Source: Chloroflexota bacterium (GTDB taxonomy: Bacteria > Chloroflexota > Anaerolineae > Anaerolineales > DRMV01). From it: DNA of 59,446 bases. The notes under the pieces are model-generated. The model searched no databases and was not told where the DNA came from. It saw only the letters and a program-made list of their open reading frames with translations. The position numbers and the translations under genes are program-made. Positions within the stretch are counted from its first letter, which is position 1; each line of letters starts with the position of its first letter. Positions 11,001 to 59,184 of the stretch are shown one piece after another. Location: positions 1 to 59,446 of the forward strand of contig DRMV01000009.1 in assembly GCA_011322445.1 (NCBI GenBank), given 5' to 3'.

Positions 11001-14000
11001 TGGTGCTCGACCCCAACGGCCGCCCCTTGCCCCATTACCCCCTCACGCTGAACGTGGAAGAAGAACGCTGGCACAGCGTGCAGCAGCGCGACGCCAGCGG
11101 CATTCTGCACTGGAAAGACACCCTGGAAACCCTCCCCGTGACGACCTTCGACAGCCTCACCACCGACGACAAAGGGCGCGCCACGGTCACCTTTACGCCC
11201 GACCACAGCGGCACGTATCGCTTCACCGCTGCCGCCCGCGATCGCGACGGCCGCCGCCGCGAGGCTTCCTTGCGCTTCTGGGTTGCAGGCAAAGAAGCCC
11301 TGCTGTGGGCACAAGGCGAACACACCCTCCCACTCATCCCCGACAAATCGTCCTACCACCCCGGGGGAACCGCCCACCTGCTGGCGCCCCAGCCTTTCGG
11401 CAAGCCAACTTACGCGCTGCTCACCGTGGCGCGGGAGCACATCTTCACCCACCAGGTCGTGCGGCTCGACCAGCCCAACACGCTGCTGAACATCCCCCTC
11501 ACGGCCGACATGGCGCCGGTGGTTTACGCCTCACTGCTCACCCTGCGCCCGCCCGAAGGCGACCGTCCGGCCGATTTCCGCAGCGCCATCGTGCGGCTGC
11601 CGGTGGCGTTAGACGCCCAACAACTGGAAGTCACCCTCACCCCCGACCGCGACCACCTGGCCCCCGGCGAAACGGCCCGCTTCACCATCACCACCCGCAC
11701 CCACGACGGCCAGCCCGTGCCCGCCGAGGTTTCCCTCGCCCTGGTCGACAAAGCCATCTACGCCCTCGCCCCCGACACTTTCAGCCTGCTCCAGCGGCTT
11801 TACCCGATGTATGGCCTGCGCGTTGCCACGGCGCTGGGGTTGGTGAACGATCTGGAAGCCTACGACGCACGCGTCCGCAAATGGCTGCCGGAAGGGGAAG
11901 GCATGGGCAGCGGCGGGGGCGAAAAAGGCGCCGACCTGGGCGGCGTGATCCCGGTGCGGGAGACCTTCCGCGACACCGCCTACTGGCGGGCCAACGTCCA
12001 GACCGACGCGCAAGGGCGCGCCACCGTCAGCATCACGCTGCCCGATAACATGACCACCTGGGTGATGCGCGCCCGCGCCATCACCGCCGACACGCGCGTG
12101 GGCACTGCCACTGCTGAAATCACCGTCAACCGGCCCTTCTTCGTGCGGTTGCACACGCCCGCCTTCTTCACCGGCGGCGACCAGCCCCGCATTCAGGCCG
12201 TGGTGCACAACGCCACCGACACCCCCCTGCAAGCCACCGTGCGCCTCACCCGCGCCGACGGCCTCACGTTGCAAAGCCCGGTCGAGCAAACAGTCACCGT
12301 ACCCGCCAAAGGGCAGGCCGCGGTGGCCTGGCAGGCTTCCGTGCCCCTCACCGCCACCCGCGTCGACCTGGTGGTAGAAGCCCGCGCCGGCAACTACCGC
12401 GACGCCACCCGCCCCATCCTGACCACGCTGCCCGACGGCGGCATTCCGGTCTATCAGTTCACCACCGACGAAATCGTGGGCACCGCCCACGCCCTGACCC
12501 AGGCCGCCGAAATCCACGAAACCGTGTTGCCGCCCGCCGACGCCGCCGATGTGACCCTCCGGCTGGATGTGGCCGCCTCGCTCACCGCCGGCCTGGCCCA
12601 AAGCCTGAGCGTGGGCCAGCCGCCGGAAAGCCATTGCACCTACGCCTGGGCCGACAACCTGCTCGCCAACGCGGCCGCAGCCCAGGCCTTCCAGGCCCTC
12701 GGCGCGACGCCCCAAAACAAAGCCCAACTGGACACCGCCGTCCAACAGGCCGTGCAGGCGCTGGAAGCCACCCAACACCCCGACGGCGGGTGGGGCTGGT
12801 GCCCCCAGGGCGATACCGCCCCCCTGCCCACGGCCTACGCCACCCTCGCCCTCTCAGAAGCCGCCCGCGCCGGTTACACCACCGACCAGCGCGTGCTGCG
12901 CGCCGCCGCCGACAACCTCTACCTCGCCCTCACCCGCCAGCCCAAAAGCCCTGCCCCAGGCAAAACCTTCTCCGCCGCGGCCCAGCCGCTCTCGCTGGAA
13001 AGCCGCGCTTTCCTCATCGATACACTCGTCCGGCTGCCGTTCCGCTTCCCGGGGACGCTAACCACGGAAATCTACGCTCTCAACAAGAAAGCCGCCGACC
13101 ACGGCATGGGCATCACCGGCTGGGCACTGCTGCTACACGCCGCCCAGGCCACCGGCATGGGCGACGCCTTCACTACGCCCATCCTGCGGCGGGTGGAAAA
13201 CACGGTGGTGCTTTCCGCCGCCGGTGCCTACTGGGACCACAGCCCTGGCCCCGGCTGGATGTGGGGCACCGACACCGCCACCACCGCCCTGGCCCTGGAC
13301 GCCCTGCTGGAAACCGATCCCCAAGCGCCCTTCCTGCCCAATGTGGTGCGCTGGCTGATGCAAAACCGCGATGCCCGCGGCCGCTGGGCAGGCGGGCAGA
13401 ACACGGCTGTTGCGGTGCTCGCCCTTGCGCACTGGGTACGCTTCAGCGGCGAAAGCCACCCCAACTACCAGGCCACCATTGCCCTCAACGGCAGGCAGGT
13501 TGCCGCTTTGAACATCACACCCCAAAGCAACCTCGCACCGCAGCACTTCACCTGGCACGCCGCCGACCTCCGCCTGGGCGCGCCCAACGACCTCGCCATC
13601 CGCCGCACCGCCGGGCCGGGGACGCTCTACGCCAGCGCCTACCTGACCACCGTACTGCCCGCAGGCCAATTGCGCGCCCGTGCCGACGGCGTGGCGGTTT
13701 CCCGCGCTTACTACCTGCTGAACGACCTGAACACGCCCGTCACCACCTTCCCGGTGGGCGCGCTGGTGCAGGTGCGGCTCACGGTGGTCGCCCCCCACGA
13801 CTTGCGGCATGTGCTGCTCACCGACTACCTCCCCGCGGGCATGGAAGCCCTCGACCCCAACCGCACCTGGAAGCCCGAAGCCACCGACGCCTTCTCGTGG
13901 GAAGATTTCCGCCGCTACGGTTGGGGTGGCTGGTACTTCTACCATCGGGAAGCCTACGACGAACGCGTCGTCTTCTCAGCCGACTTCCTGCCCGCGGGCG

Positions 14001-33435: not shown

Positions 33436-33572
33436 GGGAGGGAATTAGGGAATTAGGGAATTAGGGAATTAAGGGATTGAGGGATGTGCGACGCAATTCG
33501 CCACTCGCAATTCCTCATTCGCCACTCGCTACTCGCAATTCGCGATTCGCCACTCGCAATTCTTCATTCGCC
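33436..33572. repeat. Simple and degenerate tandem repeats between xanthine-dehydrogenase genes
   Basis: About four units of GGGAATTA (33439-33471) are followed by irregular units built from ATTCGCCACTCGCAATTC (33491-33572). The latter run into the stop codon of the FAD-subunit gene. The origin is probably replication slippage. No hairpin with a T-run is evident. Confidence 0.75.
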
Positions 33573-34433
33573 CTTCGCGCGCTCCCACGCCTTCCCCACG
33601 GTTTCGCGCAGGAGAATGCCGGCGAGGTGGCGGCGGTAGGTTTCGGTGGCGCGGTAGCGGCTGGTGCGGAAGCGGGCTTCGCGGAGCAGGGCTTCCACCG
33701 CGGCGTTCAGCGTCGCTTCGTCGGGCGTGTGGCCGCAGAGGACGCTTTCGGCGGCAGTGGCGCGGCGAGGCACCGGCCCAAACGGCCCCACGGCAATGCG
33801 GATTTGCGCGATGCGGTCGCCTTCCCGCACCAGCCAGACCGCCGCGTTGAGGATGGGCAGCGCCACGCCCTGGGGGCGCATCACGCGGCGGAATGCCGAA
33901 GCCGCCTTCCGCCGCGCCAGCGGCAGCCAAAAGCCGACCAGCATTTCCTCGTGCTTGAGCGCGGAGCGGCCGGGGCCGAGGTAAAGGTCGGCCAGGGGCA
34001 CGCGGCGGCGTCCTTGGGGGAAAGCGACCTCGGCGCGGGCATCCAACGCGAGGAGGGCAATCGCGCCGTCCGCCGCGGGAAGGGCATGAGCCACGTTCCC
34101 GCCCAGCGTGGCGACATTGCGCACCTGGTGGCCTGCCATCTGACCGGTGGCCTCGGCAAGGGCCGTGGCGTGCTTGCACACCAAAGGCGACGCCGAAACG
34201 CGGTTGAGGGGCACGCCCGCGCCAACGAAGAGTTCGTCGCCGCGGACTTCCAACGCCCGCAGTTCAGGGATTTCGGTGATGTCCACCAGTGCCTGCACGG
34301 GCGGGTGCCGCCCCTGTTGCAAATCCAGCATCAGGTCGGTGCCGCCGGCAATCAGCACGGCGGCTTCCCCTGCTTCGGCCAACGCCTGCAGGGCTTCTTC
34401 TACGGTTTTCGGGCGAAGGTGGGTGTGCCACAT
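33564..34433 (-). CDS. Xanthine-dehydrogenase-family FAD-binding subunit (CoxM type)
   Basis: 289 residues from the ATG at 34433. VLIAGGTDLMLDLQQGR and QVRNVATLGGNVAHALPAAD are the two FAD-binding motifs of this family. The C-terminal CO-dehydrogenase flavoprotein domain follows. It accepts electrons from the 2Fe-2S clusters of the downstream subunit. No Shine-Dalgarno is evident upstream, where simple repeats lie; an in-frame ATG 18 codons earlier (34487) is equally unsupported. Confidence 0.92.
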   Translation of the reverse strand: MWHTHLRPKTVEEALQALAEAGEAAVLIAGGTDLMLDLQQGRHPPVQALVDITEIPELRALEVRGDELFVGAGVPLNRVSASPLVCKHATALAEATGQMAGHQVRNVATLGGNVAHALPAADGAIALLALDARAEVAFPQGRRRVPLADLYLGPGRSALKHEEMLVGFWLPLARRKAASAFRRVMRPQGVALPILNAAVWLVREGDRIAQIRIAVGPFGPVPRRATAAESVLCGHTPDEATLNAAVEALLREARFRTSRYRATETYRRHLAGILLRETVGKAWERAKGE

Positions 34434-53013: not shown

Positions 53014-53183
53014 CATCCACCTCCGTAGGGATTGGTTTGGCGAGAACAGGCTTTCGTTCAACACTTGCATTGTGCCACCGGGAGGTGAACAGACGCGTGG
53101 TGAAAGGTAAAAAGAAGGTTACAAAAACGCCCTTTTGAATCTTCCGGCGACCCCTTGCCCGTAAAACACATCAGCAGAGGAAC

Positions 53184-53223
53184 GGCTATACGAAACACCC
53201 CTTTAGAAAAAGGCTATACGAAA
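53184..53223. repeat. Direct repeat of GGCTATACGAAA at the DnaA-N gene end
   Basis: Two copies (53184-53195 and 53212-53223) spaced 28 bp. The second contains the stop codon of the minus-strand gene. The flanking CACCCC is also repeated, so this looks like a local duplication of the gene end. Confidence 0.5.
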
Positions 53224-55382
53224 TCCACCCCCAGCCACCCTGCCAAAGCCAGCATGGCCTGGCGCCCTGCTTTCCCGAAGACCTGCCAGCGCGGCTCCAC
53301 CGCCATCACGGCTTCCGGCCCGTATTCCAGATGCCGCGCCAGTAGCGCCCGGATTTGTTCTTTGGGTAGCCGGGCAAGGGCATCAAAGGCGCCGCCGGGC
53401 AAGCCACCCTGCCGGATTTTGTGTACGGCAAAACCTAACGGCGCTTCCAGCCTGGTGTCATGCGCGGCCACATAGAGCAGCCAGGCCACCCCGTGCCAGG
53501 CAGGAAAGCGCAGCAGGGCTTTCTGCACGGCTGGGGCAAGGTTTTGCCAGGCCGGTAAATCTTCCCAGCGCCACGCGGTAGAGATTTCCCCACCCGCCTG
53601 CGCAGGTGGGTGCTCTTTTGGTTGCCCGGAGGTTGCCTGAGGGTGATTAAGGTTAACGTGAGGGAAAGTTTTGGCGCTTTCCGCGGGAAGGTTTTGGCCG
53701 CGCGGGAGGAAAGTTTTGGCAGAGCCGGAGGAAACCTTTGGCGTTTCCGGGGGAAATTTTTGGCCTTCTGGCGAGGATTGTTGAGGAACACCGGGGGAAA
53801 TTTCTGGCAATTCGGCCAGGGCTTCCAGGGCGCGGCGGCGAATTTCCGGCGGAGCCTCGACGTTGGTCAGCGTATGAAGGGCTTCTTCGGCCACAGTCGT
53901 GTCTTTGTGGCGGCAGGCTTCCTGCAGGCGATGCAAGGGGGTGAAATCGCCCTGCTGGGCGCAGGCGGCCAGGGCTTGCAGCGCGAGGCGATGAGCCGCT
54001 TCGTCGGCGGGTGTGAGCGGCAGCACGGTCTGCACCGCGAGCGTGAAGGTGTTTCCCCGCCCGGGTGGTCGGCGCAGGAAGGCCGCGGGCGGTATGCTTT
54101 CCCCTTCTGGCGGCGCAGCGGCCGGCGTGTCGAGGGCTGCCACGGGGATCAAATCACGCCCATAGCGGGCTTTTTTCAGGCCCAGCCAGCCTGCCACGCG
54201 GCGGGCTGTGGCTTCCAGCGTGCGGAAGCCGTTGCCTGCCGCGCGGCCTTCGCGCTCGGCGCGGTGGCGGGCGACCAGGTAAAGCCAGGCTACGGTGTGC
54301 CCCAGCGCCGGCAGGTGATGCTCGATGAAATACCAGGGGATGAAGAGTTTGCCTTCGGCTTCGATGAGTGAAGTTTCCAGAAGTTCGCCCATGCCGAGTG
54401 CTTTGGCCAGGGTGGCTTGAGGCAGCGCCAGAGGGCGCAAACGCTCGCTGAGCGCGGCGCGCAGGGAGGGCGGTTGCGCAGGCGGCGCGGGGGGCGGGCT
54501 GGGCAGGGGCGCCAGCAAATTTTGGGGAGGCTGTTGCAGCGCCGCGGCCAGCGCTGCGATGGGGTCTTCTTTCAGATTGTGGGCTTCCAGGAACGCTAAC
54601 ACGCTTTCCAGGTCGTGGGGCGTGAGGGGCATATCGGTGGTGAAGATGTAGCGGTTGGGCGCTTGCCGGTGGGCGTCGAGATGGCGGTCTCGCTCCACCT
54701 GCACAAGGGGGGCGAGCAGCCCCTGGTTGAGGATGTTGTTGATGGTGCGCTTGGTGAGGTGGCTCCAGCGGGCGAGGGTGTGGCGTGGTACTTCCAGCGC
54801 CTGGCCGGGGCGGATGGGCTGACCGGGGCCATAAGGATGGCGATTGGCGAGGAAGTGGGTTTGCCGGAGGGCAACGTAGAGCCAGGCAGCCCGACTGCCG
54901 AGGTAAGGCAACCAGCGCAGGAAGTAGCCGGGCAGGAAGACGATGCGGCGAGGTCGCTGGAAGGCGTCGCGCAGGCGCAGGCTGACAGCGCGCAGGTCGA
55001 CGGATGCAGGCATGGGTGTCGGGGGTGGTGACGGCTCGTTGGCTTGGGCTTGCGGAACAGTTGTTCCGGAAGGCTGTGGGTTTTCAGAAGGTGGGGTTGT
55101 ATCGAGGGGTGGGGTTGTATCGGGCGCGGCCACGACGAAAACCACCTGAACAGGCGCGCCGAGCAAGCCGCGCAGTTGATTTTCCAGCGTGGTGCGCAGG
55201 CGGTCGGCCAGCCAATCTCGGGCATAGGCGTTGGCGACGCCCACGGTCAGCACTTGCCCATCGTAGTTCAAGGGGCGCGCGTCGCGCAACCAGGCGTCGA
55301 AATCGGCCCGGTTGAGGGTGTAACGCAGCTGGCCGAGCACTTGCTGCCAGGCTTGCTGTGCTTGCGAAAGGAGGGACGACAT
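53214..55382 (-). CDS. DnaA-N-terminal-domain protein with duplicated winged-helix-like modules (putative replication initiator or DNA-binding protein)
   Basis: 722 residues. Residues 5 to about 85 match the DnaA N-terminal domain: AWQQVLGQLRYTLNRADFDAWLRDARPL, LTVGVANAYARDWLADRL, VQVVFVV. After a Pro-rich linker a module begins RIVFLPGYFLRWLPYLGSRA-AWLYVALRQ, runs through LARWSHLTKRTINNILNQG (helix-turn-helix-like), and ends NRYIFTTDMPLTPHD. A second copy reads KLFIPWYFIEHHLPALGHTV-AWLYLVARH ... NTFTLAVQTVLPLTPADE. A third, partial copy has FPAWHGVAWLLYVAAHD. There is no AAA+ or DnaA box-binding domain. The neighbours (AAA ATPase, parAB) and the internal iteron-like DNA repeats suggest a replicon-initiation or segregation role. 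Function unproven. Confidence 0.83.
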   Translation of the reverse strand: MSSLLSQAQQAWQQVLGQLRYTLNRADFDAWLRDARPLNYDGQVLTVGVANAYARDWLADRLRTTLENQLRGLLGAPVQVVFVVAAPDTTPPLDTTPPSENPQPSGTTVPQAQANEPSPPPTPMPASVDLRAVSLRLRDAFQRPRRIVFLPGYFLRWLPYLGSRAAWLYVALRQTHFLANRHPYGPGQPIRPGQALEVPRHTLARWSHLTKRTINNILNQGLLAPLVQVERDRHLDAHRQAPNRYIFTTDMPLTPHDLESVLAFLEAHNLKEDPIAALAAALQQPPQNLLAPLPSPPPAPPAQPPSLRAALSERLRPLALPQATLAKALGMGELLETSLIEAEGKLFIPWYFIEHHLPALGHTVAWLYLVARHRAEREGRAAGNGFRTLEATARRVAGWLGLKKARYGRDLIPVAALDTPAAAPPEGESIPPAAFLRRPPGRGNTFTLAVQTVLPLTPADEAAHRLALQALAACAQQGDFTPLHRLQEACRHKDTTVAEEALHTLTNVEAPPEIRRRALEALAELPEISPGVPQQSSPEGQKFPPETPKVSSGSAKTFLPRGQNLPAESAKTFPHVNLNHPQATSGQPKEHPPAQAGGEISTAWRWEDLPAWQNLAPAVQKALLRFPAWHGVAWLLYVAAHDTRLEAPLGFAVHKIRQGGLPGGAFDALARLPKEQIRALLARHLEYGPEAVMAVEPRWQVFGKAGRQAMLALAGWLGVDFV
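53661..53808. repeat. Iteron-like array, 16-bp unit at 22-bp period, inside the DnaA-N gene
   Basis: Six copies related to GGGGGAAATTTTTGGC end at 53675, 53698, 53720, 53742, 53764 and 53808. Steps are 23, 22, 22, 22 and 44 bp. The slot ending at 53786 holds a decayed copy. Two helical turns separate the units. Since 22 is not a multiple of 3, the encoded peptides differ in frame, so selection on protein does not explain the array. Exact copies recur at 59145 and 59169. Confidence 0.65.
55054..55067. promoter_or_regulatory. Candidate parS-like palindrome 1
   Basis: GGAACAGTTGTTCC within TGCGGAACAGTTGTTCCGGA, in the segment of the DnaA-N gene encoding its Pro-rich linker, where coding constraint is low. 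Confidence 0.5.
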
Positions 55383-55565
55383 TGCGCGCACCTGAATGGA
55401 TTCCCCCGATCGGTATGGGTGCGCAGGCGGGTATCGGGAATGCGCCAGCCGGAAGCCCTGAGGGCGTCCGGTGCCACGAGGGGAGCCTGGTTGTAAGGGG
55501 AGGCGGTCCGGCAGGGGGCTTTCCCTTCCACGGGAATGTGCCACACCTTTCCGGCCCTCTCAACC

Positions 55566-55755: not shown

Positions 55756-55769
55756 GGAACAATTGTTCC
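55756..55769. promoter_or_regulatory. Candidate parS-like palindrome 2
   Basis: GGAACAATTGTTCC, preceded by TTGC, ends exactly one base before the stop codon of the AAA gene (55770). Confidence 0.55.
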
Positions 55770-56540
55770 TCAAGGCTGCCCGACCATCCACGGCTCGACG
55801 GTGGTGCCGCCGCCTTCCAGCAGCGCCTCAAGGGCCAGGCGGCTGAGTTCCAGCGTCTCCCGTGGATTGCCTTGCGAAAGCATGTAGAGGCGCTCTAACG
55901 CCTCGGGGGTGAATAGCGATCCCATCACCCGGCCGGCGCGCCGCGTGATTTCTTCGATCACGAAAACCAGCGTGTCATAGTCCCACGGCGTCAGCAGGTA
56001 ACGGGCTGCGCCCTGGATGCCCCGGCTATCCCACGGATGGTTGAAGACGGCATAGCCGGTAAGCACGACGGTTGTGGCCTGCGCGAGGTCGGCAATGAGT
56101 TGTGCCATGCCCGAGTTCAGGCGTTGCTGCCCCAGGTCGATCACAATGCCGGCGTATTGATTCTGCAGGAAGGCCTCTAAGCGAGCGCGGCGCAGTTTTT
56201 CTTCCTTGACCCGCGGCAGCCCTAAACTGTCGTTGACCAGCTTGAGTAGCCGGTTGGCTGTGCGCGGGGCAACGGCTAAGGCCAGGGGCGAGGGCAACCG
56301 TCCCCCCGCCAGAAAGCGGGCAAATGCCGATTTGCCGCTCCCCGGCTCGCCATCGATCAGCACCAGGCCTTTCTCCTGGCTGAACCATCGCTGCCGGATT
56401 TCTTGATAAACGCGGGCCAGTTGAGGCACGGGCACGAAATAACGCCCGTCCTCGAAGGTCTCAAAGGGGTTTTCCAGCAGACGGAGCATCTGCAGGCGCA
56501 GCGCACGCTGCACAGCCGGGTTCTCTGGGGAAGTTGCCAT
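55770..56540 (-). CDS. AAA ATPase (ExeA/TniB-like)
   Basis: 256 residues. Walker A GEPGSGKSAFARFL near residues 64-77, a Walker B-like AGIVIDLGQQ, sensor-1-like TTVVLTGYAVF, and a C-terminal helical part with LYMLSQGNPRETLELSRLALEAL (sensor-2 lid). This is the architecture of the ExeA/TniB/MuB group of ATPases that load partner proteins on DNA or peptidoglycan. It lies upstream of the DnaA-N gene on the same strand and divergent from parA. It could assist the DnaA-N protein as DnaC/MuB-like ATPases do; that is inference. The ATG at 56540 has GAGGTGACC close by; a GTG two codons earlier is possible. Confidence 0.85.
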   Translation of the reverse strand: MATSPENPAVQRALRLQMLRLLENPFETFEDGRYFVPVPQLARVYQEIRQRWFSQEKGLVLIDGEPGSGKSAFARFLAGGRLPSPLALAVAPRTANRLLKLVNDSLGLPRVKEEKLRRARLEAFLQNQYAGIVIDLGQQRLNSGMAQLIADLAQATTVVLTGYAVFNHPWDSRGIQGAARYLLTPWDYDTLVFVIEEITRRAGRVMGSLFTPEALERLYMLSQGNPRETLELSRLALEALLEGGGTTVEPWMVGQP

Positions 56541-56772
56541 GGTCACCTCGTGACCTCATTATACACCCTTTTGGCGGAATGTGCATAACGGGATTTGAAT
56601 ATGCTCATTTTGTTCAAAATGGCGCCTTGTTGGTGCGGTTTTGTGAAACGCACTTGCTTTTTTGCTTTGGGGGTGATAAGATATAAGCGGCGGGGAGCCT
56701 ATGCTGGCGGTGCGAGGGGGCAGCGGGTTGGCTTCCCCAAAGCGCGTGTTCGCGTGAACGAAGGAGCATTCT
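56541..56772. promoter_or_regulatory. Divergent promoter region between the AAA gene and parA
   Basis: Minus strand: TATAAT at 56558-56563 serves the AAA gene. Plus strand: TATAAG at 56682-56687 may serve parA. Between them lie inverted repeats ATTTTG-tt-CAAAAT (56606-56619) and GTGCG...CGCAC (about 56632-56652), plausible operators for ParA/ParB or the AAA-DnaA-N pair. Confidence 0.4.
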
Positions 56773-57594
56773 ATGATTCTGGCGGTTTCGGCCCTCAAAG
56801 GGGGGCCAGGCAAGACCACCTTCGCAGTCAATGTGGCGGCAGGGTTGGCGCTCCGCATCAGCAAGCGCACCCCCCGCCCGCGGGTCCTGCTGGTGGATCT
56901 GGACCCGCAGGCGCACGCCGCGTATTGGGCGTTGGGGAAATCGCGCGGCGACCCCATCCCTGTGGGTGAAGAGGACCTCTCCACCCATCTGCTGGGCACC
57001 GCCCACGGTTCGCCGCTGGACATCATTCACCCGGCGGCCTTCCCCGCTTCGGCCAATATGGATGTGGTGCTGGTGCGCCCTCAGGCTATGGCCCAGGCTG
57101 AGCGGGTGTTGACGTCGGACCTGGCCGAGGGTATTTACGCCCTGGAGGAGTATCTGGAGCCGTTACGGAGCGCCTATGCGGTGATTGTAGTTGACACGCC
57201 GCCTTCGGCGGGGGCGATGACGCTGAACGCGCTGGTGGCTGCGGATGCCGTGCTCATTCCCATGGAACTGACCAAAATGGGGGTCGATGGCCTGCGCGAA
57301 ACGCTGGCTGTGGTGGAAAAAATCCGCCGCCGTCACAACCCCCAAATGCGCATTGTGGGCATTGCCCCCAACCGCTGCGATTTCCGCCGTAGTGAGACGA
57401 ATGATATTTACCGCTTCATGCGCCAGCAATACAAGGACCTGGTGCTGCTTCCGGTGGCCGAGCGGGCGCAAATTGCTTATGCCTCTTCACTGCGCAAAGA
57501 TATTTTTTCGCACCTTGGCTCGACCCAGGACCAGGCGGTGGTGGAAATGGGGCGGGTGGTCGATGCCGTAGTGCAGAGGTTGGGACTCCGGTAG
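56773..57594 (+). CDS. parA: ParA-family chromosome/plasmid partition ATPase
   Basis: 273 residues. Deviant Walker A SALKGGPGKTT near residues 6-16 (with the signature Lys), VLLVDLDPQAHAAYWALG, and Walker B VIVVDTPPSAGAMTLNAL. IGIAPNRCD-type and VAERAQIAYASSLRKDIFSH segments complete the ParA/MinD fold. There is no N-terminal DNA-binding extension, so this is a small chromosomal or type Ib ParA. It works with the ParB encoded 67 bp downstream to move DNA carrying parS. AAGGAG precedes the ATG. Palindrome 3 lies between it and parB. Confidence 0.95.
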   Translation: MILAVSALKGGPGKTTFAVNVAAGLALRISKRTPRPRVLLVDLDPQAHAAYWALGKSRGDPIPVGEEDLSTHLLGTAHGSPLDIIHPAAFPASANMDVVLVRPQAMAQAERVLTSDLAEGIYALEEYLEPLRSAYAVIVVDTPPSAGAMTLNALVAADAVLIPMELTKMGVDGLRETLAVVEKIRRRHNPQMRIVGIAPNRCDFRRSETNDIYRFMRQQYKDLVLLPVAERAQIAYASSLRKDIFSHLGSTQDQAVVEMGRVVDAVVQRLGLR

Positions 57595-57601
57595 CCCTTG
57601 C

Positions 57602-57615
57602 GGAACAGTTGTTCC
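57602..57615. promoter_or_regulatory. Candidate parS-like palindrome 3
   Basis: GGAACAGTTGTTCC, preceded by TTGC, lies 8 bp after the parA stop and 46 bp before the parB start. Confidence 0.55.
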
Positions 57616-57661
57616 ATAAGCCGCGTGTTGCCCAAACGGGCGCTTTCTCTTGGGAGTGCGT

Positions 57662-58822
57662 ATGTCTCGGAAACGCAAGCCTCAGTGGACGGCCGATGAC
57701 TTTCAACCGACCGCCGACACCCAATACGACGACCTGCTGCAAACCCCCGCGGTGCCCACCGGCGGGCGGCAGGCCCGCAAGCGGGTCACGCGGGTGCTGG
57801 TTAGCCAGATTTTGCCCGACCCTTACCAGCCGCGCCCTTTGTTGCCGCCGGAAATCAAGCAAGATTTCTTTGCTGGGCAACTGAACTGCTTCGAGGCCGC
57901 GCGTGCCTGGCTGACGCTGGCCGAGCAGGAGCCTGCCGAGGCCGAGCGCGTTCAGGCTCTGCTGCACATGGGGGCGACTTTCAGCGAACACGGCCAGATC
58001 AAGCCCGTTACTGGCTACTGGGATGCGCAAAGCCGGCGCTTCATTCTGGAAACCGGGGAACGGCGTTTCTGGGCAGCGGTGTTACAGGCGGTGCAGCAAG
58101 AGAGCGCCGAAGAGCCCCAACTGGAAGCCCTGGTCGTCGAAAAGCCTTCCCGCGCCCGGCAGGTGTTGGAAAACATCACCGCTGAACCGCCCAGCGCGGT
58201 GATGCGCGCCCGGGAGATCGCAGCCCTGGTGTTGGAGCAAATGGATGTCTTGCCGGAGACCGGCGAAAGCGATTTCGCTTACTACCGACGCGCTGCTGAG
58301 ATCAAGCGCCTGCCTTCGGCGGTGGTGCGCCATGTGGAAGATTTGTTGGGCATGAGCCGCCGCTACATTCGCTACTACTTGCAAATTCTCCATTTGCCCG
58401 ACCACCTGCTGTTGCTGGCCGACCGCTACCGCCTGAGCGAAGGCGCGCTACGCGAGGTGCTCAAAGGCGCGCCGGAGACCTGGGAAGAAAGCATTACGGC
58501 GCTGATTGCGGGTCTGGGTGATCCGCGGGAAGCCGCTGCGCCGGTGGCCGAAAAGCCGTCCCCTGCCAGGGGCAAGCCCCGCCCCAAGCGGGCGCAACTC
58601 GACCCCCGCATTTCCATTGCGCGCCGCATGCGCACGCCGGTGCGCTCGTTGTTGCGGCTGGAAGCCGACGACGTTCCCCGGGTGGCCGAGCACTTCGCGG
58701 CTGAGTTGGGTGATCCTGCGATGGTGCAGCAGGCTGCCGATGCGCTGGCTGCCCTGGCCGAGCGGCTGCGCGCCCTGGCGCAGGAAGGAGAAAGCGGCAA
58801 ATCGCGCCGCCGTAAACGGTAG
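57662..58822 (+). CDS. parB: ParB-family DNA-binding partition protein
   Basis: 386 residues from the ATG at 57662 (GGGAG upstream). The CTPase/ParB-N part has RVLVSQILPDPYQPRPLLP and GQIKPVTGYWD...FILETGERRFWAAVLQA. Between these lies a 50-residue insertion (FEAARAWLTLAEQEPAEAERVQALL) not found in standard ParB. The helix-turn-helix part follows: REIAALVLEQMD, LLGMSRRYIRYYLQILHLPDHLLLLADRYRLSEGALREVLKG. A basic Arg/Lys-rich C-terminus ends the protein. The insertion and divergent HTH could recognise a site other than canonical parS. Confidence 0.88.
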   Translation: MSRKRKPQWTADDFQPTADTQYDDLLQTPAVPTGGRQARKRVTRVLVSQILPDPYQPRPLLPPEIKQDFFAGQLNCFEAARAWLTLAEQEPAEAERVQALLHMGATFSEHGQIKPVTGYWDAQSRRFILETGERRFWAAVLQAVQQESAEEPQLEALVVEKPSRARQVLENITAEPPSAVMRAREIAALVLEQMDVLPETGESDFAYYRRAAEIKRLPSAVVRHVEDLLGMSRRYIRYYLQILHLPDHLLLLADRYRLSEGALREVLKGAPETWEESITALIAGLGDPREAAAPVAEKPSPARGKPRPKRAQLDPRISIARRMRTPVRSLLRLEADDVPRVAEHFAAELGDPAMVQQAADALAALAERLRALAQEGESGKSRRRKR

Positions 58823-58889: not shown

Positions 58890-58964
58890 GAGGAACTTGA
58901 GTTTCGGATAGTGTCTCTGGTAGCGTTTCGTGCTGAGCGGAGCAACCCACGGGAGCGAAATCGA

Positions 58965-59005
58965 AGTGCCTGCACTGAGCCATGCCGCAGTGCCTGCACT
59001 GAGCC
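58965..59005. repeat. Direct repeat AGTGCCTGCACTGAGCC
   Basis: Two exact 17-bp copies (58965-58981, 58989-59005). Each contains AGTGC-ctg-CACT, a small palindrome. The flanks GCGTTTCG (58923-58930) and CGAAACGC (about 59017-59024) are inverted, so the whole block may fold. It belongs to a TCGAAGTGC/GCTGAGCGGAG-type interspersed repeat. Confidence 0.5.
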
Positions 59006-59116
59006 GCGTCGAAGTGCGAAACGCGGCCAACAGCGCGTTTCGACGATGATTGCTTCGCGATTTCCGCTCAACGCGCTTATCCGCAACTCAGGTTGGGTGA
59101 GGATGATGGGGCTGCG

Positions 59117-59130
59117 GAACAATTGTTCCG
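59117..59130. promoter_or_regulatory. Candidate parS-like palindrome 4
   Basis: GGAACAATTGTTCC in TGCGGAACAATTGTTCCGTA, 14 bp before two exact iteron-like units. Confidence 0.55.
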
Positions 59131-59144
59131 TAGGTTGACATCCG

Positions 59145-59184
59145 GGGGAAATTTTTGGCCGGTTGCTGGGGGAAATTTTTGGCA
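59145..59184. repeat. Two exact iteron-like units beyond parB
   Basis: GGGGGAAATTTTTGGC at 59145-59160 and 59169-59184 (24-bp period), identical to the best copy in the DnaA-N gene at 53749-53764. Confidence 0.65.

What the first reader, a model, noticed from the sequence alone, without database searches (positions are those of the whole stretch)
53661..53808. Iteron-like DNA array hidden in a coding sequence, with exact copies 5.4 kb away
Seen: six 16-bp units on a 22-bp grid (with one decayed slot) within the DnaA-N-domain gene, and two exact units at 59145-59184. A period of 22 is out of codon phase, so the array is kept for DNA function, with two helical turns per step as in plasmid iterons. 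Inference: binding sites for the DnaA-N protein, with its duplicated helix-turn-helix modules, or for ParB.
Basis: partly seen in the sequence, partly recalled or inferred. Interest (0 to 1): 0.82.

Follow-up and report, generated by a model that had tools for sequence, protein, structure and literature searches.

The report
Replication-origin repeats hidden inside initiator gene
A regular row of short DNA repeats sits inside a bacterial gene for a probable DNA-replication starter protein, is kept at the same positions in related species even where the gene has been cut short, and most likely marks where a second, plasmid-like chromosome starts copying itself.

Summary
In detail: six 16-bp units at offsets 0/23/45/67/89/133 (slot 111 blank) in the 3' linker of a DnaA-domain-I gene, and two exact units 5.4 kb away; no other exact copy exists in the 2.63-Mb genome. 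Offsets are identical in five species. Unit columns are 81% identical against 47% for spacers, equally at all codon positions. In two species a stop codon cuts the ORF inside the array, yet all six units remain. Other families carry different iterons (24- or 33-bp steps) at the same place in the same gene. The locus (initiator, AAA ATPase, ParA, ParB, four private GGAACARTTGTTCC palindromes) sits at a GC-skew minimum. In two near-complete relatives it lies on a 180- or 293-kb second contig, at the bottom of a V-shaped skew; the 180-kb one matches a circular plasmid record (CP069395). Chromosomal ParABS and dnaA are elsewhere. Best reading: iterons of a plasmid/chromid-type origin embedded in its own initiator gene and bound by that initiator; the palindromes are parS-like. 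Binding is inferred. Embedded origins are known (lambda O, repC); this initiator type (DnaA domain I without AAA+) appears undescribed. That the window's own contig is a chromid is probable, not shown.

The parts
53660..53808 (+). embedded iteron array: six 16-bp units (consensus GNGGGMARNNWTTGGC) at 53660, 53683, 53705, 53727, 53749, 53793; slot 53771-53786 blank
59144..59183 (+). second iteron cluster, two exact units 24 bp apart, downstream of parB; a pair is also present in four other f1 genomes
53214..55544 (-). initiator-like protein: DnaA domain I (residues 64-122), two similar helical (putative winged-helix) modules, low-confidence linker encoded by the array (residues 579-629), C-terminal helical domain; the true start may be an internal ATG
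   Evidence: Pfam DnaA_N 2e-9; PDB DnaA domain I 2.6e-8; AF2 low confidence outside the two ends
55770..56546 (-). AAA ATPase (AAA_22), conserved neighbour; helicase-loader or ORC-like role is only a guess
56773..57594 (+). ParA ATPase
57650..58822 (+). divergent ParB (TIGR00180 below cut-off; weak HTH_ParB)
55054..55067 (.). parS-like palindrome GGAACAGTTGTTCC inside the initiator ORF (peptide GTTVPQ)
55756..55769 (.). parS-like palindrome GGAACAATTGTTCC just past the 3' end of the AAA gene, between it and the initiator gene
57602..57615 (.). parS-like palindrome GGAACAGTTGTTCC between parA and parB
59116..59129 (.). parS-like palindrome GGAACAATTGTTCC, 14 bp before the second iteron cluster

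Best explanation
The array is the iteron part of a replication origin (oriV) embedded in the 3' linker of its own initiator gene. The initiator (DnaA domain I plus DNA-binding-like modules, no AAA+ domain of its own) binds the direct repeats, which lie about two helical turns apart on one face of the helix. Its DnaA domain I then helps recruit the replicative helicase, perhaps with the neighbouring AAA ATPase. The second unit pair downstream of parB is a further initiator site (handcuffing, copy control or origin extension). ParA, ParB and the palindromes segregate the replicon. In relatives this locus starts a secondary replicon of 180-290 kb; the window's contig is probably part of such a replicon. 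Shown: conservation, position, locus specificity, skew minimum, secondary replicons in relatives. Inferred: who binds what, helicase recruitment, and the replicon status of this contig.
For: Identical offsets in five species; 81% against 47% identity with no codon-position effect. Array retained beyond an in-frame stop in G009 and G012. Non-homologous arrays at the same place in the initiator ORF in other families: G171 24-bp steps, G059 33-bp, G131/G112/G091/G324 33-bp. A further unit cluster downstream of parB in f1 and in f13 genus g46. Skew minimum at the locus in the window. V-shaped skew with minimum at or near the locus and maximum half a circle away in G324 C2 and G331 C2. A circular plasmid record of the same length and ParB position as G324 C2. 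dnaA and canonical ParB on C1 in those genomes and on other contigs in G000, with canonical parS on C17. DnaA domain I by profile.
Against: No binding data. The DNA-binding modules were not matched to any solved winged-helix initiator, and the model of that part is poor. No clear AT-rich unwinding element was identified next to the array. Part of f13 has a short initiator and its array downstream of parB, so embedding is not universal. The window contig carries tRNA-Leu(CAG) and a DAHP synthase gene, which would also fit a main chromosome.
Confidence: 0.75

Rival explanations
1. The direct repeats are a ParB (or ParA) centromere site, like the repeat-type centromeres of some plasmids, not replication iterons.
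For: The array lies in a par locus, and repeat-type centromeres exist on plasmids. Two of the eight units lie 14 bp from a palindrome.
Against: Four palindromes private to the locus already provide parS-type sites. The array consistently sits in the initiator gene, across families with unrelated unit sequences.
Confidence: 0.12
2. The locus is the main chromosomal origin of this lineage, or a plasmid fused into the chromosome, rather than that of a second replicon; the array is still an origin.
For: 50 kb of almost uniformly negative skew to the left; tRNA-Leu(CAG) and a DAHP synthase gene on the contig; no clustered canonical DnaA boxes found in the genome with the pattern used.
Against: Canonical ParA/ParB and parS lie on other contigs. 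In G324 and G331 the same locus is on a separate small contig, circular in the matching record. A second negative-to-positive skew switch is indicated on contig C12.
Confidence: 0.2
3. The repeats are a protein-level feature (repetitive linker) or low-complexity drift.
For: The linker is low-complexity; in other families the step is 24 or 33 bp, in codon phase.
Against: In the window the units are read in all three frames, conservation ignores codon position, and units persist past a stop codon and downstream of parB.
Confidence: 0.03
4. The repeats are operators for autoregulation of the initiator or par genes, not origin elements.
For: Initiators often autoregulate (general knowledge).
Against: The array is at the 3' end of the gene, far from the divergent AAA/parA promoter region, and at a skew minimum.
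Confidence: 0.07

Closest known systems
Phage lambda ori-lambda within gene O
   Same: Direct-repeat sites for the initiator lie within the initiator gene (PMC6022878 states that ori-lambda lies within gene O; the four iterons are from general knowledge).
   Different: Phage, unrelated protein, no DnaA domain I and no par locus; here units are out of codon phase and a second pair lies downstream of parB.
repABC replicons (Rhizobium etli p42d)
   Same: oriV lies inside the initiator gene repC, next to ParA/ParB-type genes, on large plasmids and secondary chromosomes (PMC3155836).
   Different: repC has no iterons (PMC3155836, abstract); different gene order; here the initiator carries DnaA domain I and an AAA ATPase is added.
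Iteron plasmids (RK2, P1, R6K, pPS10)
   Same: Two to seven iterons of 17-22 bp, bound cooperatively by winged-helix Rep proteins (PMC4980987).
   Different: Iterons there generally lie outside the rep gene (general knowledge); no detectable Rep homology here.
Ktedonobacteria chromid-like replicons
   Same: Large secondary replicons of Chloroflexota with V-shaped skew and parA near the origin (PMC13289182).
   Different: That study found no Rep-family initiator and no parB on them; here a candidate initiator and a parB are present.

Membership tests
Iteron-type origin | Multiple regularly spaced direct repeats in the origin region | tested here: met
   Six units, offsets conserved in five species
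Iteron-type origin | Origin location (skew minimum) | tested here: met
   Window switch near 53-54 kb; G324 C2 and G331 C2
Iteron-type origin | Repeats bound by the cognate initiator | not testable with these tools
   Needs footprinting or ChIP
Iteron-type origin | AT-rich unwinding element | tested here: inconclusive
   Least GC-rich stretches at 53100-53249 (49%) and 56550-56699 (46%); neither is striking
Known Rep families (Rep_3, RepA_N, RepC and others) | Pfam or solved-structure match of the initiator | tested here: not met
   Only DnaA_N / DnaA domain I found
DnaA | AAA+ domain III and HTH domain IV | tested here: not met
   No Bac_DnaA match at this locus; genuine dnaA on C27; TIGR00362 only 30.7 bits over domain I, below cut-off
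ParABS | ParA and ParB genes with local palindromic sites | tested here: met
   ParA strong; ParB divergent; four private palindromes. Binding of ParB to them not testable here.
Chromid / secondary replicon (window's own contig) | Separate circular replicon with plasmid-type maintenance genes and core genes | tested here: inconclusive
   Shown for relatives; the window contig is a 59-kb fragment

The most novel reading that the evidence does not exclude
Families of Anaerolineales-type Chloroflexota carry a long-lived secondary chromosome that replicates from a previously undescribed initiator class: DnaA domain I fused to DNA-binding modules without AAA+. Its iterons, and in f1 also a parS-like site, are written into the initiator gene's own linkers, and the iteron sequence has turned over between families while its location stayed.
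Probability: 0.45. Interest if true: 0.78.

Novelty: new variant of a known kind. Interest (0 to 1): 0.62.

Why it matters
It gives a testable origin, initiator and centromere for secondary replicons of a large, mostly uncultured bacterial group. The initiator is annotated only as a hypothetical protein in the circular plasmid record. It is also a clean comparative case of DNA sites overprinted on coding sequence: exact spacing is kept while the protein frame is not. If the binding is confirmed, it adds an initiator type that borrows only the helicase-recruiting domain of DnaA.

Tried and rejected
PDB hits for the AAA protein looked like chance. A canonical DnaA-box cluster was not found in G000 with the pattern used. 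A first DNA alignment of the array used wrong coordinates for two rows and was replaced (replaced). Window genes other than the par-rep genes show no conserved synteny with the f13 secondary replicons. Literature searches found no description of this initiator or of such Anaerolineae replicons in the held library.

Full report
Observation. The six units and the two distant exact units are there, one base left of the stated positions. Eleven matches with up to 3 mismatches occur in the window against 1.13 expected. Across the 2.63-Mb genome (53 contigs; the window is the whole of contig C9) the consensus has three exact copies, all here. The first step is 23 bp, the others 22 bp, and slot 111 is blank.

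Comparative evidence. Orthologues of the host gene were found in the same genus and family. Five species (G000, G004, G001, G012, G009) have units at exactly 0, 23, 45, 67, 89 and 133. Unit columns are 81% identical in pairwise comparison against 47% in spacers. The unit figure is 0.78, 0.83 and 0.83 for codon positions 1, 2 and 3, and the units are read in three frames. In G009 and G012 an in-frame stop lies inside the array, so that four units fall outside the ORF, and all six persist. G002 and G008 keep only part of the array. Every f1 genome whose contig was read well past parB (G003, G005, G009, G002 and the window) has a second pair of units there. The array is therefore kept for DNA function.

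Same place, other sequence. Initiator homologues in other families carry unrelated direct repeats in the same 3' part of the ORF: TGGACATTTTTTGA on 24 bp (G171), GTTAAATTTTGTCC on 33 bp (G059), GTMTCAAAATGACA on 33 bp (G131, G112, G091), CCGGTGTTTCAA on 33 bp (G324). The g46 genomes also have a copy downstream of parB. In the other f13 genomes read, the initiator is short (about 300 aa) and in most of them an array GTGCAAATTTTGCAC on 24 bp lies downstream of parB instead. Sequence turnover with fixed location is what a co-evolving initiator and iteron pair would give; this step is inference.

The neighbourhood. The order initiator(-), AAA(-), ParA(+), ParB(+) is conserved in f1 and much of f13. 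Four copies of GGAACARTTGTTCC occur at the locus and nowhere else in the genome even with one mismatch; relatives keep them, one inside the initiator ORF at the peptide GTTVPQ. Several f13 loci have a different palindrome, TGTAACCNNGGTTACA. These are parS candidates.

The replicon. GC skew is negative for 53 kb and turns positive at the locus. Part of the local rise near the array comes from the G-rich units themselves. In G324 and G331, near-complete genomes of two contigs each, the locus is on the small contig (179,736 and 293,070 bp). Its cumulative skew has its minimum at or near the locus and its maximum half a circle away, and no tRNA genes were found in the stretches read. CP069395.1 is a circular plasmid of exactly 179,736 bp with ParB at the same coordinates, so it is taken to be the same molecule; the initiator is a 'hypothetical protein' there. 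A weaker relative lies on the 212-kb circular Leptolinea HRD-7 plasmid, about 5.5 kb from a direct-repeat array on a 25-bp grid. Main-chromosome dnaA and canonical ParB lie on C1 of those genomes and on contigs C27 and C20 of G000, with canonical parS on C17. The window contig is therefore probably part of a second replicon. It also carries tRNA-Leu(CAG) and one of two DAHP synthase genes, so chromid would be the apt word if confirmed.

The protein. Residues 64-122 are DnaA domain I by Pfam and by solved structures. No AAA+ and no known Rep domain was found. By eye there are two similar internal modules; the array codes for residues 579-629, inside a low-confidence, structure-free stretch 578-655. 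In G059 the DnaA domain I sits at the C-terminus instead.

Mechanism and kinds. The working model is the iteron-plasmid one (PMC4980987), with the origin placed inside the initiator gene as in lambda O (PMC6022878) and repABC (PMC3155836; there without iterons). It works like those, but it was not shown to belong to any known Rep family. In Ktedonobacteria a study of chromid-like replicons found no Rep initiator and no parB (PMC13289182); whether relatives of this initiator occur there was not tested here.

Noticed in passing
G059 locus L072:8985-11081: Initiator homologue with permuted order: HTH-like modules and the 33-bp array come first, DnaA domain I at the C-terminus.
   Followed up: partly
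G028 C1:44062, C1:3139244 and C1:2029489 (L068-L070): Three distant initiator homologues beside ParA genes on one 4.4-Mb chromosome contig; two have open frames of the same length (659 aa). Possibly integrated plasmids or mobile elements.
   Followed up: no
L233:2340-2514 (Leptolinea HRD-7 plasmid, AP024711.1): Direct-repeat array on a 25-bp grid near a Soj-like gene, a likely origin or centromere of that plasmid.
   Followed up: no
L058:8520-8904 (G009): Six-copy interspersed repeat (CAGAGNACACAGAA, TTATCCACCGA) between parA and parB.
   Followed up: no
window 58961-59017: 24-bp tandem repeat (2.4 copies) between parB and the second unit pair.
   Followed up: no
window 13150-13228: ARAGORN call of a tRNA with a four-base anticodon inside a 2022-aa ORF, probably false.
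   Followed up: no
G000 C12 (20-34 kb not read): Skew goes from negative to positive across this contig: candidate main-chromosome origin away from dnaA.
   Followed up: partly
window 33439-33578: Short-period tandem repeats (AGGGAATT and a TCGCCAC-type 7/14/21/28-bp array).
   Followed up: no
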